Shown one piece after another: positions 11,231-34,366 of a stretch of 64,000 nt of DNA. The stretch is from Pseudoduganella albidiflava (GTDB lineage Bacteria > Pseudomonadota > Gammaproteobacteria > Burkholderiales > Burkholderiaceae_D), in NCBI RefSeq assembly GCF_004322755.1, contig NZ_CP036401.1:930001-994000 (forward strand), in the 5' to 3' direction. Below the pieces are notes generated by a model. That model searched no databases and was not told the DNA's origin. It was given only the letters and a program-made list of their open reading frames with translations. Position numbers and translations under genes: made by a program. Every line of letters begins with the position of its first letter. Within the stretch, counting starts at the first letter, position 1.

Positions 11231-12559
11231 ATGAAGGTAGCAAACAAGAGCGGCGATACGGCCGCGACGACGGCGTCGAACAAGCTGTCGGTTCCGGAAG
11301 CGAACGGGCGGGCCGGGACGGAATTCATGCTGGTGAACTGGCTGAAGGCGGTGGCCGCGCAATTGATCGTGCTGCACCACCTGGCGTTCTATGGCCCGAT
11401 GGCCGACCATGCGCGCACCCTGTTGCCCGAAGTGATGGACTGGCTCGCCGACCCGGCGCGCTTCGCCGTGCAGGTGTTCCTGGTGATCGGCGGGTTCCTG
11501 GCCGCGAAGTCGCTGAGTCCCGAGGGCCGCGCCGGGCTGGTCCGTCCGCGCGCGGCGCTATGGCGGCGCTACGTCAAGCTGGCGCCGCCATTCCTGGCCG
11601 CGACGCTGCTGGCCGCGCTGGCATCAGCCTGGGCCGCCGCGTGGATGACACATGATTCGATTTCCGCACCCGCCACGTTCGCGCAGCTGTGCGCCCACGC
11701 GGTATTGCTGCACGGCGTGCTGGGGTATGAATCGCTGTCGGCGGGCGCCTGGTATGTCGCCATCGATTTCCAGCTGTATGCGGCGCTGGCCCTGATGCTG
11801 TGGCTGGGCGGCCGCGTGGCCGGCACGCGGCCGCTGCCGTGGTTGATGCCGTGCGCTGTCGCGCTGGGCATCGCCGCGTCGCTGTTCTATTTCAACCTCG
11901 ATGCCGGCTGGGACGACTGGGCTCCCTATTTCTTCGGCAGCTATGGCCTGGGCGTCATGGCGTGGTGGGCAGGCGACCGCAGCCGCAAGGGCGGCGCCGT
12001 CGCGTTGCTCGCGGCGCTTGCCGTGTTGCCGGTGCTTGCCGCGCTGGTGCTCGACTTCCGCGACCGGATCGCGCTGGCGCTGGCGGTGGCCGGCCTGCTG
12101 TTCCTGTTCGGCCGCCTGCGCGCGCTGCCGAATGGGCCCGCGGCGTCCGCTGCCAGCTGGCTCGGGCGCATTTCCTACGCCATCTTCCTCGTGCACTTTC
12201 CCGTCTGCCTGGTGGTCAACGCGGCGTTCACGCGGTTTGTGCCGGCCGAGCCGGCATGGCAGCTGCTCGGCATGCTGGGCGCGTGGGGTGCGAGCCTGGC
12301 GGCCGGCGCCGCGTTTTACCGGTGGGTCGAGATGCCGCTCGGCCGCATGGTGCGCTCCGCTGCCACGCGGGTTGCCGCGCCTGCGTGGAAGGGGAGCAGG
12401 CAACGCTGCGCTCGTGAGGTGGCCTGCGCCAAAAAAAAAGGCCAACCGCGCAGGTTGGCCGAAATGGGGGAGGGTAATGCTTTGCTGCTCAGTGTTTACT
12501 GCCGTGCGCCTACTTGCTTGTGCCTGCTTAGTTGTGCCTGCTTAGTTAAGCCTGCTTAG
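11231..12559 (+). CDS. Acyltransferase 3 family membrane protein with abnormal C-terminal tail
   Basis: About 442 residues. The core (about 30-385) has ten hydrophobic helices and the family opening LVNWLKAVAAQLIVLHHLAFYG, whose His-His/Arg-type site is used by O-acetyltransferases (OafA/NodX group) that acylate sugars or lipids. ATG 11231 is preferred (AGGG six bases upstream); a GTG at 11213 is possible. The last 60 or so codons (after RMVRSAATRVAAPAW) look non-native: they run through a GCCAACC terminator hairpin of opposite polarity and into 14-base repeats. A stop at 12415-12417 in another frame suggests stop loss or a frameshift. Target molecule unknown. Confidence 0.7.
   Translation: MKVANKSGDTAATTASNKLSVPEANGRAGTEFMLVNWLKAVAAQLIVLHHLAFYGPMADHARTLLPEVMDWLADPARFAVQVFLVIGGFLAAKSLSPEGRAGLVRPRAALWRRYVKLAPPFLAATLLAALASAWAAAWMTHDSISAPATFAQLCAHAVLLHGVLGYESLSAGAWYVAIDFQLYAALALMLWLGGRVAGTRPLPWLMPCAVALGIAASLFYFNLDAGWDDWAPYFFGSYGLGVMAWWAGDRSRKGGAVALLAALAVLPVLAALVLDFRDRIALALAVAGLLFLFGRLRALPNGPAASAASWLGRISYAIFLVHFPVCLVVNAAFTRFVPAEPAWQLLGMLGAWGASLAAGAAFYRWVEMPLGRMVRSAATRVAAPAWKGSRQRCAREVACAKKKGQPRRLAEMGEGNALLLSVYCRAPTCLCLLSCACLVKPA
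12430..12460 (-). terminator. GCCAACC-type hairpin with 9-T run, inside the acyltransferase 3' end
   Basis: Stem GGCCAACC / GGTTGGCC, five-base loop, followed on the minus strand by nine T. It is oriented to stop leftward transcription, but no minus-strand gene ends here. It may block antisense transcription or be a relic. Confidence 0.6.
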
Positions 12560-12574
12560 TTAAGCCTGCTTCGT
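12519..12574. repeat. Short tandem repeats of about 14 bp (TGCCTGCTTAGTT type)
   Basis: Three to four adjacent copies of GCCTGCTTAGTT(AA/GT), the first also as TACTTGCTTGT. The acyltransferase stop TAG lies in the third copy. The rest of the gap up to the tRNA-Lys terminator (to 12834) holds no gene or clear signal that I can see. Confidence 0.7.
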
Positions 12575-16445: not shown

Positions 16446-17012
16446 TTGAAGTACCTCTATTGGTGATTGTCTTATTGTCAGTGACGATTGTGGAAATACA
16501 GGGAAGTGTGTATTACGCGGTGCAATGGTAACGCCGGCGTATCGGGCCAATCCGGGGTCATGGCAACAAAATGTAACCCCTGTTCCTCCGGCTTGCAGCG
16601 CATTTGCCCGTGGCAAATGAAGCGGGAGGATGATTGTCGGCAGGGCATCTTAAATGGCGCTGAAAATGACCGGTTTTTAACAAATCTTGCGCGTGCTGCC
16701 ACTTTAAAGTTGATTCATGCTGTACAACACGTTACCCTTACACTCTAGGGATCGAATTGACGGAGAGAAACGCGACTAGCGCTGCCGGTGCAGCGGCATG
16801 CCGCGCACCACGGGGAAGCAGTGTCGCGCGATGCTGGGCAATATTGCGCAGTGTGGCGCATTGATGTGCATTGATGTGCGTTGTTGCGCGTTGTTGCGCG
16901 TTGTTGCGCATTTGCTGACATGCACCTACCTCGCAGTGTGCCGCAGCGTGCCTTGTATAGGTGCCTTCAATATAAAACACATACCGTACAACAGGTCGAT
17001 TTTGAGGGAAAA
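16446..17012. other. 567-bp intergenic region between divergent genes
   Basis: Separates the glycine-zipper gene (minus) from the barstar-like gene (plus). It has an AT-richer part (16600-16750) likely to carry the promoters and a block of 10-bp repeats at 16821-16910, listed separately. No convincing coding sequence was found; two short frames here arise from the repeats. Confidence 0.6.
16821..16910. repeat. 10-bp tandem repeat, nine units, consensus TTGTTGCGCA
   Basis: Nine consecutive 10-base blocks, each ending in GCGCA, GTGCA, GCGCG or GGGCA. The last five (16861-16910) are closest: TTGATGTGCA, TTGATGTGCG, TTGTTGCGCG twice and TTGTTGCGCA. The period matches about one turn of DNA. It ends 102 bases upstream of the barstar-like start. 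Confidence 0.8.
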
Positions 17013-29474: not shown

Positions 29475-29649
29475 CACCGGTGCGGCACGGCGCTCCCGCA
29501 GGCTCGACACCCGGATTTCCGGAAAATCGGTGACAGTCACCATTTATAGGAAATCGGTGACAGTCGCCATTTTCCTACCGGTCTCAACACCGGTGCGGCA
29601 TGGCTCCCGCTGGCTCAGCTCACGGATTCACCAGAAAATCGGTGACAGT
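29475..29649. repeat. Two direct copies of a 65-bp palindrome-containing repeat
   Basis: Copy A (29475-29541) and copy B (29586-29649) share CACCGGTGCGGCA, GCTCCCGC and AAAATCGGTGACAGT. Copy B is split by the IS3 element. Between them lies a third GGTGACAGTCGCC. All belong to the dispersed palindrome family. Confidence 0.75.
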
Positions 29650-29682: not shown

Positions 29683-30492
29683 CTATGCTACTTGGAGCTG
29701 AGTTCTGTACTGCACAGGACTCAGCCCGTTCAACCTAAGCTTGATGCGCTTGTGATTGTAGTAGCGGATGTACTTCACCAGGCCTTTCTTCAGCTCCTCG
29801 ATACTGGCAAATTTCTGCAGATGGAAGTACTCAGTCTTGAGTACGGCGAAGAAGCTCTCCATGGCAGCGTTATCGAGGCAATTTCCTTTGCGAGACATGC
29901 TCTGCACGACATTTTTATCCTCCAGCGCCTTCCGGTAAGCGGGCTTCCGATAGTGCCATCCCTGGTCTGAGTGAAGGATTGGCTTGTCGTCTTTGCCGAG
30001 CTTTCGCAGGGCTTTTTTAACCATGTTGGTAACCAAGCTCAGCACTGGCCGGGTGTTCGTCTCGAAGGCGATGATCTCGCCGTTGCACAGATCCATCACC
30101 GGCGAGAGATACAGTTTTTTGCCAGCGACATTGAACTCCGTGACATCAGTTACCCACTTCTCGTGCATGGCCGCAGCTTCAAAATCGCGGTCCAAGAGGT
30201 TATCTGCAGCTTCGCCCACTTCGCCTTTGTAAGAACGATACTTCTTCGGCCGCACCAGCGATTTCAAGCCGAGCTCGCTCATCAAACGCTGTACACGTTT
30301 GTGGTTAACCTTATGCCCGTCCTTGCGGATCTCAGCGGCCACACGGCGATAGCCATAGCGCCCGTGGTTGCCGTCGAAGACGCCCTGAACACGATTTTTT
30401 AAGGCCTCGTCACGATCGCCTAGCTTGGCCACTTGCTGCTGATAGTAGTAAGTGCTGCGCGCCAGGCCTGCTACTTCCAGCAAGCCATCCAA
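29683..30492 (-). CDS. IS3-family transposase OrfB (DDE catalytic subunit)
   Basis: 269 residues from the first ATG, but the frame is open upstream through KVITELRQRFPLDGLLEV, the usual OrfB beginning, and is probably made as an OrfAB fusion. An HTH_21-type segment (GRYGYRRVAAEIRKDG) precedes an rve integrase core with the DDE set: Asp in WVTDVTEF, Asp in LHSDQGWHY and Glu in MESFFAVLKTE. The C-terminal YYNHKRIKLRLNGLSPVQY is typical of IS150 relatives. Intact, so the element may be active. Confidence 0.93.
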   Translation of the reverse strand: MDGLLEVAGLARSTYYYQQQVAKLGDRDEALKNRVQGVFDGNHGRYGYRRVAAEIRKDGHKVNHKRVQRLMSELGLKSLVRPKKYRSYKGEVGEAADNLLDRDFEAAAMHEKWVTDVTEFNVAGKKLYLSPVMDLCNGEIIAFETNTRPVLSLVTNMVKKALRKLGKDDKPILHSDQGWHYRKPAYRKALEDKNVVQSMSRKGNCLDNAAMESFFAVLKTEYFHLQKFASIEELKKGLVKYIRYYNHKRIKLRLNGLSPVQYRTQLQVA

Positions 30493-30518
30493 AGGGAAAC
30501 GCTGCCTCAGTTCAGTGA

Positions 30519-31052
30519 TTACTTTCGCTTTTTGCGCGCTATCGCACGCTGCTGCTTCTCTTCCTGAACCAAGGCATCCAGCTTTTTTAGGTAGGCGTTC
30601 TCCATCCGCAAGTAGTTCACTTCTTTGAGAAGCTCTTCAAGGGTCTTGGCCTCTTCATCGAGAGGCGTTTGCGGCGCGGGCGGCTGGGATGTGGGCATTT
30701 TCTTCGGTCTCTGGCGCGGTCGGGGACTGAGCGCATCTATACCGCCGCTATGATAGCAGCGCTCCCACTGGCCGATGCTGCCGGTGTGGCGCACGTTGAA
30801 AATCACGGCCGTCTCGAAACATGACAACTCATGTTTCCACATGTGCTGCAATATCGACAGCTTGCCCTCAGCGCTGTGCCTATGTTGCTTCTTCTCCAGG
30901 CCCCCCACGCCATGAGCGTCGTATAGCCTGACCCACAAATAGACCAGGCTAGGATCCACGCCCATCTCGTTGCCCAGACGAACGCATCCTAACGGGCCGG
31001 CCCGATATCGATCGACCACCTCTTGCTTGAACTGCACACTGTATTTCGCCAT
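30519..31052 (-). CDS. IS3-family transposase OrfA (DNA-binding subunit)
   Basis: 177 residues. Two helix-turn-helix regions (FKQEVVDRYRAGPLGCVRLGNEMGV-like text and CFETAVIFNVRHTGSIGQWER) for end recognition, a proline-rich linker, and a C-terminal coiled coil (EEAKTLEELLKEVNYLRMENAYLKKL). It ends ARKKRK: the codons AAA AAG at 30528-30533 just before the stop are a slippery site. A -1 shift there continues into OrfB (AKVITELRQRF). Start at 31052 (MAKYSVQFK) is preferred over 31064. Confidence 0.9.
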   Translation of the reverse strand: MAKYSVQFKQEVVDRYRAGPLGCVRLGNEMGVDPSLVYLWVRLYDAHGVGGLEKKQHRHSAEGKLSILQHMWKHELSCFETAVIFNVRHTGSIGQWERCYHSGGIDALSPRPRQRPKKMPTSQPPAPQTPLDEEAKTLEELLKEVNYLRMENAYLKKLDALVQEEKQQRAIARKKRK

Positions 31053-31096
31053 GAAAAACCCCAAAAGTTGGTGTCCAACTTTTAGGGTTCAGTTCA

Positions 31097-31195
31097 CAGT
31101 CACCATTTTTAGGGAAACATTGCCCGGAAAATGGAGCCTGTCACCGTTTTTCGGGAAACATTGCCTGGAAAATGGGGTACGTCCCCATTTTTCGT
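31097..31195. repeat. Dispersed palindromic repeats right of the IS element
   Basis: Contains CAGTCACCATTTTTAGGG, AAACATTGCCCGGAAAATGG, CTGTCACCGTTTTTCGGG, AAACATTGCCTGGAAAATGG and GGGGTACGTCCCC. The last hairpin with its T-run (AAAATGGGGTACGTCCCCAT then TTTT) lies 35 bases beyond the threonine-dehydratase-like stop and could serve as its terminator in both directions. Confidence 0.75.
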
Positions 31196-32195: not shown

Positions 32196-32318
32196 CGTCT
32201 GTCCTTTCAAATCAGGGTGTAAACAGATTATCTGATATTGGATAAAGTGTATAGATGAAGGCGAAAAAAAGCCCCGGGAAAATCCAGAAGAAAAATCCCG
32301 GAACACGTTCGGCAGAAC

Positions 32319-32344
32319 AAAAAAAGCCCCGAACAAGTCGGGGC
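32319..32344 (-). terminator. Terminator downstream of the phasin gene
   Basis: On the minus strand GCCCCG / CGGGGC stem with a 7-base loop and seven T, 92 bases after the phasin stop. Confidence 0.8.
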
Positions 32345-32435
32345 GTGCGAAGGACATCCGCTGAGAGGATCCACGGATGCCGAGGAGACCTGGTACAGCG
32401 ATGCTTTCAGTGCGCCGGCGCGGCCGGCGCGGGTA

Positions 32436-33014
32436 TTACGCGGCAGCGGCGGCCGAGTTGGCGGCGGCTGGTGCGGACTTGACGGCGGCGGTGAACTGGT
32501 TCACGGCGGCGTTCACGTTCGCTTCGTAAGCTTCGGCAGCTTGCTTGGCGGTGCGGGTGAACTGTTCATAGCCGGCGTTGGCGCTGCCCAGGGCGGATTT
32601 GAACAGGGCCACGGCGTTTTCGCTGCCGGCCGGTGCGTTCTTGCTGACTTCGTCGACCAGCGAGATGATCTTGCGGTTCGTTTCCAGGATTTGCGCTTCC
32701 ACGGCTTTCGAGAACTCGGAAGCGGTGCTCTGGGCGATCGATGCCAGGTGGCGGCTGTACGCGATGGCTTTCTCGGCGCTCGGCTGAGCCTGGGCAGCGC
32801 TCAGCGAGAAGAACTCCTGCGGATCCTTGGCGGCCAGCAGCTGCTTCGCGGCGGCGGAGGTATCTTCCAGCGAAGCCTTGGCGGCGGTCAGGTTCAGGTC
32901 GACGAGCTTTTCAACGCCTTCGAACGTCTTGTTCGTCAGGGAGGAGAAAATCGCGAATTGGCTTTCGAAATTCGCCTTGGTCGCATTGGAAAATTGCTCA
33001 GGAATCGAAAACAT
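32436..33014 (-). CDS. phaP: Phasin family protein (PHA granule coat protein)
   Basis: 192 residues, all-helical, opening MFSIPEQFSNATKANFESQFAIFSSLTNKTFEGVEKLVDLNL, the consensus N-terminus of betaproteobacterial phasins (Phasin_2). An alanine-rich coiled region and a C-terminus ending AAANSAAAAA follow. Phasins coat polyhydroxyalkanoate granules and control their number and size. GGAGAA precedes the ATG at 33014. Several phasin paralogues are usual per genome. The upstream region holds TGC-containing repeats, listed separately, which may bind the PHA regulator PhaR. Confidence 0.92.
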   Translation of the reverse strand: MFSIPEQFSNATKANFESQFAIFSSLTNKTFEGVEKLVDLNLTAAKASLEDTSAAAKQLLAAKDPQEFFSLSAAQAQPSAEKAIAYSRHLASIAQSTASEFSKAVEAQILETNRKIISLVDEVSKNAPAGSENAVALFKSALGSANAGYEQFTRTAKQAAEAYEANVNAAVNQFTAAVKSAPAAANSAAAAA

Positions 33015-33061
33015 GTAGTTCTCCAGAAATAAATATCGTTGATGAAAGCTTGCTGTGGTCT

Positions 33062-33473
33062 AGGACAGCTATTGTGCAACGCAACATGCTCAATTCTACG
33101 GTTGCGCAAGATTAAGTCAAGCGAAATTTGTGCATTGCACCAAGGCACGATAGATTGCTCCCCAAACCGCTAGAGCGAAGCGAATTTTGTGCATTGCACC
33201 AAAGCACGAGAGGTTGCTCCCCAAAACACTAGAGTGAAGCGAATTTTGTGCATGGCACCAAAGCGTGATAGCTTGCTCCCCAAAACACCAGAGTAAAGCG
33301 ACTTTGTGCATTACACCGAATCCTGACCGATTGCTTCAGTCAACACCAGAGTAAAGCGGATTCATGTATTGCACTGAAGAACGGATTCGTTACAGTTCAT
33401 AACGCTAGCGTGAAGCATATTTGGTGCCTTGCACAAAAGTACCAATCCATCACTTATAGCAATACGGTCCCGC
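33062..33473. repeat. Tandem array of about 59-bp repeats upstream of the phasin gene, each with a TGTGCATTGCAC dyad
   Basis: Units begin at 33121, 33180, 33239, 33298, 33356 and 33415 (period 59, once 58). Units 1-3 are nearly identical; units 4-6 decay with distance from the phasin gene, and a degenerate unit lies at 33062-33120. Each includes TTTGTGCATTGCACCAAAGC, a dyad GTGCA-T-TGCAC, then GCTCCCCAAAACAC and AGAGTGAAGCG. The period is not a multiple of 3, so it is not coding. It separates the divergent phasin and EamA genes. Confidence 0.9.
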
Positions 33474-33499
33474 CAACTCGACCGTGTTAGACTGAAACG

Positions 33500-34366
33500 A
33501 TGTCCCCGTTCCTTTCGCCGGTTCCCCTGTTCTTTGTTTTCCTGTGGAGTACAGGGTTCATCGTGGCCAAGTTCGGCCTGCCCTATGCCCCGCCGCTGAC
33601 CTTTTTGCTGATGCGTTATGCCTGCGCGGTGGCAGTGCTCGCGCCACTGGTCTGGCTGCTGAAGGCGCCGTGGCCGACAGGCAAGGCCAGGCATATTGCC
33701 GTCTCCGGCCTCCTGCTGCATGGCGGATACCTGGCGGGCGTATGGTGCGCCATCAAGCTGGGCATGCCGGCCGGGCTGTCCGCGCTGATCGTCGGCATGC
33801 AGCCGATCCTGACCGCTTTCGCGGCGCCACTGATCGGTGAGCGCGTCACGCCACGGCAATGGCTGGGCCTGCTTTTCGGACTGGGCGGCGTAGCCCTCGT
33901 GGTGTATGCGAAAATCACCCTGACAGGCCTGTCGTGGCAAGCCATCGCACTGTGCCTGGGCGCGCTGGTGTCGATCACGGCGGGCACGCTTTACCAGAAG
34001 CACTGGTGCCCCCAATTCGATTTGCGTACGGGAACGGCCATCCAGTTTTCGGCGTGCTTCGTTGCAACGCTGCCATTTGCCCTCATGTTCGAAGGATTGA
34101 CCCCGGCGTTGCCGGCGGTCGAATGGACGCCGCGTTTCGTCGCCGCACTGCTGTGGTCGGTATTTGGCTTGTCGATCGGCGCGATCTTCCTGCTGTTCGC
34201 CCTGATCCGCCGGAGCGATGCGACCCGGGTCACCAGCCTGCTGTACCTGACCCCGCCGACCACCGCGCTGATGGCATGGCTGATGTTCGGCGAGGCGTTC
34301 AGCCCCCTCGGCGTGGCCGGTATGGCGCTGGCGGTCACCGGGGTGTTCTTCGTGGTGCGCAAATGA
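33500..34366 (+). CDS. EamA/DMT family transporter
   Basis: 288 residues, ten hydrophobic helices in two EamA halves (start VPLFFVFLWSTGFIVAKFGLPYA; second half ALVSITAGTLYQKHW). Probably exports a small metabolite through the inner membrane; substrate unknown. It is divergent from the phasin gene across the 59-bp repeat array, and the nitroreductase gene follows 22 bases on. Distinct from the two other EamA proteins in the window. Confidence 0.83.
   Translation: MSPFLSPVPLFFVFLWSTGFIVAKFGLPYAPPLTFLLMRYACAVAVLAPLVWLLKAPWPTGKARHIAVSGLLLHGGYLAGVWCAIKLGMPAGLSALIVGMQPILTAFAAPLIGERVTPRQWLGLLFGLGGVALVVYAKITLTGLSWQAIALCLGALVSITAGTLYQKHWCPQFDLRTGTAIQFSACFVATLPFALMFEGLTPALPAVEWTPRFVAALLWSVFGLSIGAIFLLFALIRRSDATRVTSLLYLTPPTTALMAWLMFGEAFSPLGVAGMALAVTGVFFVVRK

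What the first reader, a model, noticed from the sequence alone, without database searches (positions are those of the whole stretch)
33062..33473. About 59-bp tandem repeats with a TGTGCATTGCAC dyad between a phasin gene and an EamA gene
Six to seven units with a period of 59 (once 58) bp; three are almost identical and the rest decay away from the phasin gene. Each has a GTGCA-T-TGCAC dyad. In other bacteria the PHA regulator PhaR binds TGC-rich dyads at phasin promoters. An array of such sites would be an unusual multi-site control region or repressor sink, tying granule coating to PHA status. Coding is excluded by the period.
Basis: partly seen in the sequence, partly recalled or inferred. 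Interest (0 to 1): 0.75.

Follow-up and report, generated by a model that had tools for sequence, protein, structure and literature searches.

The report
Amplified PhaR operators at phasin promoter
Upstream of a gene for a protein that coats bacterial bioplastic granules, a likely regulator-binding site next to the promoter has been copied into a row of about six, which could tighten the gene's control or could be a passing DNA duplication.

Summary
The array is real: six units, 58-60 bp apart (33110-33454), between a divergent phasin gene (Phasin_2) and an EamA gene. The unit nearest the phasin carries the upstream operator (BS1) of an ordinary phasin promoter: dyad 33127-33143, six bases from a -35/-10 pair (TTGACT-16-TAGAAT), with a second dyad (BS2, 33071-33087) over the expected transcription start. 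That BS1/promoter/BS2 layout, with dyads 56-57 bp apart, is present in 73 of 73 same-genus phasin promoters examined and matches the published PhaR-bound phaP1 promoter of Ralstonia eutropha. The BS1 dyad fits the published PhaR consensus with no mismatch; the genome has one PhaR gene, with a similar site upstream. So the PhaR-operator reading is well supported by sequence. What is unusual is the copying: no other of the 73 has more than three sites. One relative (G027) keeps an intact second BS1 at 118 bp and an 11-bp relic at 59 bp. Only units 1, 2, 3 and 6 keep the TGC-N3-GCA triplets; only 1 and 2 fit the full consensus. The array is a labile tandem amplification of a known operator. Likely effect: extra PhaR sites raising local occupancy. 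A 'sink' is less likely; neutral duplication is not excluded.

The parts
32436..33014 (-). phasin gene (PhaP, Phasin_2), the gene controlled
   Evidence: ORF; PF09361 E 1.1e-25
33071..33087 (-). BS2: PhaR-like dyad ATGTTGCGTTGCACAAT over the expected transcription start
   Evidence: a site at this place relative to BS1 in 73 of 73 genus promoters
33093..33098 (-). -10 box TAGAAT
   Evidence: 10 of 12 consensus matches together with the -35; the scan finds 0.7 per shuffled region, so it is weak alone
33115..33120 (-). -35 box TTGACT
   Evidence: TTGAC[AT] found 6-7 bp from BS1 in 73 of 73 genus promoters
33127..33143 (-). unit 1 dyad = BS1, TTGGTGCAATGCACAAA, 0 mismatches to the published PhaR consensus
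33186..33202 (-). unit 2 dyad, 0 mismatches
33245..33261 (-). unit 3 dyad, 1 mismatch, TGC-N3-GCA triplets intact
33303..33319 (-). unit 4 dyad, 2 mismatches, one triplet broken
33361..33377 (-). unit 5 dyad, 4 mismatches, one triplet broken
   Evidence: register set by eye
33421..33437 (-). unit 6 dyad, 1 mismatch, triplets intact
33110..33454 (.). whole array of six units with dyads 58-60 bp apart
33500..34366 (+). divergent EamA transporter gene

Best explanation
The array is a tandem amplification of the upstream PhaR operator (BS1) of a conventional phasin promoter. Shown by sequence: the promoter, BS1 and BS2 are conserved genus-wide, and the array repeats the BS1 segment at about 59 bp. 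Inferred from published PhaR work: without PHB, PhaR occupies BS1 and BS2 and blocks RNA polymerase; when granules form, PhaR moves to the granule and the phasin is made. Inferred, less sure: the extra BS1 copies, at least units 2, 3 and 6, add PhaR sites close to the promoter, so that PhaR (taken to be a tetramer in the Herbaspirillum work) has more partners for BS1/BS2, giving tighter and possibly steeper repression. The array is evolutionarily labile.
For: Dyads of units 1 and 2 fit the consensus YTKNTGCRNYGCANMAR (PMC12849132, passages) exactly; 11 such sites in the genome against 1 for the reversed pattern. BS1 and BS2 56-57 bp apart around TTGAC[AT] in 73 of 73 genus promoters, the arrangement reported for R. 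eutropha phaP1. One PhaR gene with both domains, next to phaC, with a two-mismatch site upstream. The PhaR of the same family, Herbaspirillum PhbF, has the motif TG-N-TGC-N3-GCAA and lowered phaP1 promoter activity 4-fold in E. coli (PMC3206438, passages). R. eutropha PhaR shifts phaP3 DNA with two sites at lower protein amounts than DNA with one. G027 keeps 16 of 17 dyad bases in its BS1 copy against 33 of 58 flank bases (Fisher p 0.003).
Against: No binding or expression data here. Array confined to this genome among 73 genus promoters, plus a relic in G027. In older units 4-6 the dyad (41 of 51 bases kept) is no better kept than the right flank (51 of 66), and 5 of 60 circular 17-column windows keep as many bases as the dyad, so selection on the dyads is not shown. 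Two of six dyads have lost a TGC or GCA triplet. None of the nine other exact consensus sites in the genome is at a pha gene (own reading).
Confidence: 0.6

Rival explanations
1. Neutral tandem duplication: the BS1 segment was copied by slippage or unequal recombination, units 2-6 do nothing measurable, and they are decaying. BS1 and BS2 alone control the gene.
For: The plain promoter is the rule (58 of 73 genus promoters have exactly two sites), also in the nearest relative G069 (97% identical phasin). Outer units decay; the right flank is as well kept as the dyad in units 4-6.
Against: G027 keeps the dyad better than its flank (p 0.003; flank window chosen by hand); unit 2 fits the consensus exactly, so some effect on PhaR occupancy is to be expected.
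Confidence: 0.33
2. Repressor sink: the array titrates PhaR away from other promoters.
For: Several added sites on one locus.
Against: The genome already has 9 other exact consensus sites and looser ones; three or so extra good sites are few for that purpose. PhaR copy number is unknown.
Confidence: 0.04
3. The array serves the divergent EamA gene, whose start lies 63 bp from the unit 6 dyad, making it a PhaR target.
For: Array fills the shared intergenic region.
Against: The conserved pair BS1/BS2 flanks the phasin promoter; the sigma-70 scan finds none on the EamA strand, though it would miss an extended -10 promoter; in G026 the upstream gene looks nitroreductase-like rather than EamA (own reading, not searched).
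Confidence: 0.03

Closest known systems
Ralstonia eutropha (Cupriavidus necator) phaP1 promoter and PhaR sites (PMC12849132; passages, and conclusion section)
   Same: BS1 just upstream of -35, BS2 around the transcription start, palindrome YTKNTGCRNYGCANMAR, sigma-70 type promoter
   Different: Its third, predicted site lies inside the gene; no tandem array upstream is described in the parts read
Herbaspirillum seropedicae PhbF/PhaR, same family Oxalobacteraceae (PMC3206438, passages; PMC4873508, passages)
   Same: TGC-N3-GCA core motif; represses phaP1, phaP2 and its own gene in E. coli reporter tests
   Different: Footprint shown for one site in the phbF promoter; no array in the passages read
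Sinorhizobium meliloti phaP1/phaP2 promoters (PMC12542648, passages)
   Same: Two PhaR palindromes flanking the -35; site TTATTGTGCACTGCACAAATT close to the dyad here; ppa also a predicted target
   Different: Two sites 18 (phaP1) and 28 (phaP2) bp apart by the listed coordinates; exoH has four listed sites, not at an even step

Membership tests
PhaR-controlled phasin promoter | Controls a phasin gene | tested here: met
   PF09361, E 1.1e-25; control itself inferred from position
PhaR-controlled phasin promoter | Palindromes fitting the PhaR consensus | tested here: met
   Units 1 and 2: 0 mismatches; BS2: 2
PhaR-controlled phasin promoter | One site upstream of -35 and one at the transcription start | tested here: met
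   Positions; start site inferred, not mapped
PhaR-controlled phasin promoter | Layout conserved in relatives | tested here: met
   73 of 73 genus promoters examined (one incomplete genome of 74, G055, left out); and 80 of 80 loci of genome contigs, a set that overlaps the first
PhaR-controlled phasin promoter | PhaR gene in the genome | tested here: met
   PF07879 and PF05233 on one ORF
PhaR-controlled phasin promoter | PhaR binds and PHB releases it | not testable with these tools
   needs EMSA, footprint and reporter assays
Selected multi-operator array | Array conserved in relatives | tested here: not met
   1 of 73 has more than three sites; G027 has a partial relic
Selected multi-operator array | Dyads kept better than the rest of the unit | tested here: inconclusive
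   Better than all outside columns (41/51 against 76/129, p 0.0045) but not than the right flank (51/66); 5 of 60 windows do as well as the dyad; G027 16/17 against 33/58

The most novel reading that the evidence does not exclude
A phasin promoter whose operator number is a tunable, fast-evolving trait: BS1 segments expand and collapse by recombination at a fixed step near 59 bp, close to the 56-57 bp BS1-BS2 distance, so that PhaR tetramers can bridge neighbouring sites and the copy number sets how sharply granule coating responds to PHB.
Probability: 0.2. Interest if true: 0.6.

Novelty: new variant of a known kind. Interest (0 to 1): 0.36.

Why it matters
PhaR links phasin supply to the presence of PHB in several bioplastic-making bacteria. 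A natural promoter with extra operator copies, beside relatives with the plain two-site version, gives a ready series for testing how operator number shapes repression and induction. If the array is inert, it is an ordinary example of promoter duplication and decay.

Tried and rejected
RNA element: over 32300-33600 the one Rfam match up to E 1 scores 18.5 bits against 38 needed, and the array lies upstream of the phasin -35, so it is not in the phasin leader. Coding repeat: steps of 58-60 do not keep a reading frame. Dispersed repeat: the array is unique in the genome. Each unit as its own promoter: the other units have no TTGACT at that place (alignment), and the scan finds one promoter only, at unit 1.

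Genome-wide regulon from the exact consensus: of the nine exact sites outside the array none lies at a pha gene. By own reading, one is about 64 bases upstream of a pyrophosphatase ORF (ppa), one upstream of an aspartokinase-like ORF, one about 210 bases upstream of a DEAD-box helicase ORF, one between a chemotaxis receptor and a TauD-like gene, one in a gap with no family-bearing gene close by among those tested, and four within ORFs. Sites at the second phasin, a third phasin (L048) and phaR have one or two mismatches. So the exact consensus alone is not a clean predictor.

Register: searches used a start for unit 5 that was one base off; their unit-5 figures are superseded. In one search the dyad ranked second of 59 windows in that wrong register.

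Literature: searches (7 searches; rows listed 20, 12, 10, 0, 8, 8 and 1, the lists of 11, 37, 38, 50 and 51 being cut from longer results) show no title on tandem PhaR operators. Apart from these listings I saw passages of four papers (PMC12849132 with one whole section, PMC12542648, PMC3206438, PMC4873508). The library lacks most subscription papers by its own description; I did not look for the original R. eutropha footprinting paper.

Full report
Observation. The window is bases 930001-994000 of a single-contig genome of 7.44 Mb. The closest relatives by phasin are Pseudoduganella species; the listing of 80 loci also holds Duganella, Massilia, Rugamonas, Janthinobacterium and unnamed MAGs. 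The nearest is P. umbonata, 97% identical in phasin, at the same contig coordinates as handle G069. Between a phasin gene on the minus strand (32436-33014; PF09361, E 1.1e-25) and an EamA gene on the plus strand (33500-34366) lies a tandem array. Tandem Repeats Finder calls period 59, score 287, for the better-kept part. With dyad starts taken from the motif scan (unit 5 set by eye) and a MAFFT alignment, there are six units whose dyads start 129, 188, 247, 305, 363 and 423 bases before the phasin ATG. The array has no second copy in the genome.

The first unit is part of a promoter. On the phasin strand the order is unit 1 dyad (33143-33127), six bases, TTGACT (33120-33115), 16 bases, TAGAAT (33098-33093), then a second dyad ATGTTGCGTTGCACAAT (33087-33071) over the expected transcription start. 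The start is inferred, not mapped. The same hexamer scan finds 0.7 promoters per shuffled region, so the scan alone is weak; conservation carries the argument.

Conservation. The phasin was found in 74 of 74 same-genus genomes. For 73 (the incomplete G055, with only a distant match, was left out) I read 600 bases upstream, allowing two mismatches to the consensus of which one in the core: 58 have exactly two sites, 14 have three, and this genome has six, BS2 included and its unit 5 (four mismatches) not. In four of the 14 (G020, G025, G031, G038) the third site reads like EamA coding sequence, so 14 overstates extra operators. With the core intact, 68 have two and 5 have three. Mononucleotide shuffles give 0.04 sites per region. 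Every one of the 73 has two sites 56 or 57 bp apart, with TTGAC[AT] 6 or 7 bases after the first. In 80 loci of genome contigs, which overlap this set and are the best 80 of 241, 60 have two sites and 20 three; all 80 have the pair and 79 the TTGAC[AT].

Regulator. The published R. eutropha PhaR consensus is YTKNTGCRNYGCANMAR; there BS1 lies directly upstream of the phaP1 -35 and BS2 around the start (PMC12849132, passages). Units 1 and 2 fit it with no mismatch. The genome holds 11 exact sites, two of them in the array, against one for the pattern read backwards; a unit-like pattern with up to three mismatches has 87 strand-wise matches against 30 for its reversed control. The looser S. meliloti motif and its phaP1 site (PMC12542648, passages) and the Herbaspirillum motif TG-N-TGC-N3-GCAA (PMC3206438, passages) share the core. 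The genome has one PhaR gene with both Pfam domains, next to phaC, and a two-mismatch site lies about 150 bases upstream of the phaR ORF, between phaR and phaC. Three of seven phasin-like genes have paired sites: this one, the nearest paralogue (57 bp apart) and L048 (77 bp apart); gene starts for the paralogues are approximate. Against a neat regulon, none of the nine exact sites outside the array is at a pha gene, and four lie within ORFs. One is upstream of ppa, which is also a predicted PhaR target in S. meliloti.

The array in evolution. In the nearest relative, G069, one unit stands in place of six: its left side resembles unit 6 and its right side unit 1. That fits either expansion here or collapse there. 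G027 has a second intact BS1 exactly 118 bp upstream, and an 11-bp exact match at 59 bp where the dyad is gone; 0 of 2000 mononucleotide shuffles gave such a run at 57-60 bp and 3 of 2000 at any step from 40 to 129. A plain 59-bp self-comparison of G027 was near background (0.322, fifth of 90 steps), so the evidence for a 59-bp step there rests on that run. By phasin DNA (480 bases, ungapped), G027 is nearer to G063 and G013 (93%, 92.5%) than to this genome (91%), so a shared ancestral array would need losses in G069, G063 and G013; separate expansions are as possible. No tree was built.

How rare. A pattern of three core dyads at spacings like these was found in 14 of 392 genomes sampled from the family (not all of the genus among them), the reversed control in none. 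Seven of the 14 are at phasin promoters: this one, G031, G057, G058 and G067 by position, and G104 and G170 by Pfam. The other seven were not examined, except that G068's is on another contig than its listed phasin matches. By reading, the other six phasin cases are BS1, BS2 and one more site, not an array; in G104 the third site lies at the start of the gene. A stricter pattern across a sample of the order found 2 of 399, this genome and G671, whose genes were not identified.

Function of the extra units. The Herbaspirillum paper points to the triplets TGC and GCA as highly conserved and, citing Rhodobacter work, apparently essential; units 1, 2, 3 and 6 keep them, 4 and 5 do not. In units 4-6 the dyad keeps 41 of 51 bases of the consensus of units 1-3, against 76 of 129 outside (Fisher p 0.0045); 1.9% of random sets of 17 columns and 5 of 60 circular windows do as well. 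But the right flank keeps 51 of 66, about the same as the dyad, and only the left flank is poor (24 of 63), perhaps because it is not homologous in the outer units (ties in the consensus were broken differently there, hence 75 and not 76 outside). So selection on dyads is not established here. In G027 the dyad is better kept than its flank (16/17 against 33/58, p 0.003), the flank window having been chosen by hand. R. eutropha PhaR shifts two-site phaP3 DNA at lower amounts than one-site DNA, and its authors propose dimer-dimer contacts that strengthen repression (section read). From this I infer that extra BS1 copies most likely raise PhaR occupancy at the promoter. The step of 59 bp is about 5.6 helical turns at 10.5 bp per turn, so neighbouring units do not face the same side of the DNA; this argues against a simple regular filament (own arithmetic).

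Verdict. The array is a lineage-limited amplification of it. Whether it alters regulation can be settled by a reporter comparison with and without units 2-6.

Noticed in passing
window 33485-33502: TGTTAGACT (33485-33493) ends six bases short of the EamA ATG; a similar TAGACT is visible in several relatives' sequences, suggesting an extended -10 and a leaderless EamA transcript. Own reading, not tested.
   Followed up: no
window 29683-31064: Two adjacent minus-strand ORFs that look like an IS3-type transposase pair, with short tandem repeats at 29515-29572 and 31099-31194 on either side. Identification is by eye.
   Followed up: no
window 16844-16912: About seven copies of a 10-bp repeat near TTGCGCATTG, in a stretch not examined for genes.
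   Followed up: no
window 12508-12571: 14-bp repeat GCCTGCTTACTTGT, 4.6 copies.
   Followed up: no
L040 1501-1517: Exact PhaR consensus site about 64 bases upstream of an inorganic pyrophosphatase ORF, also a predicted PhaR target in S. meliloti.
   Followed up: partly
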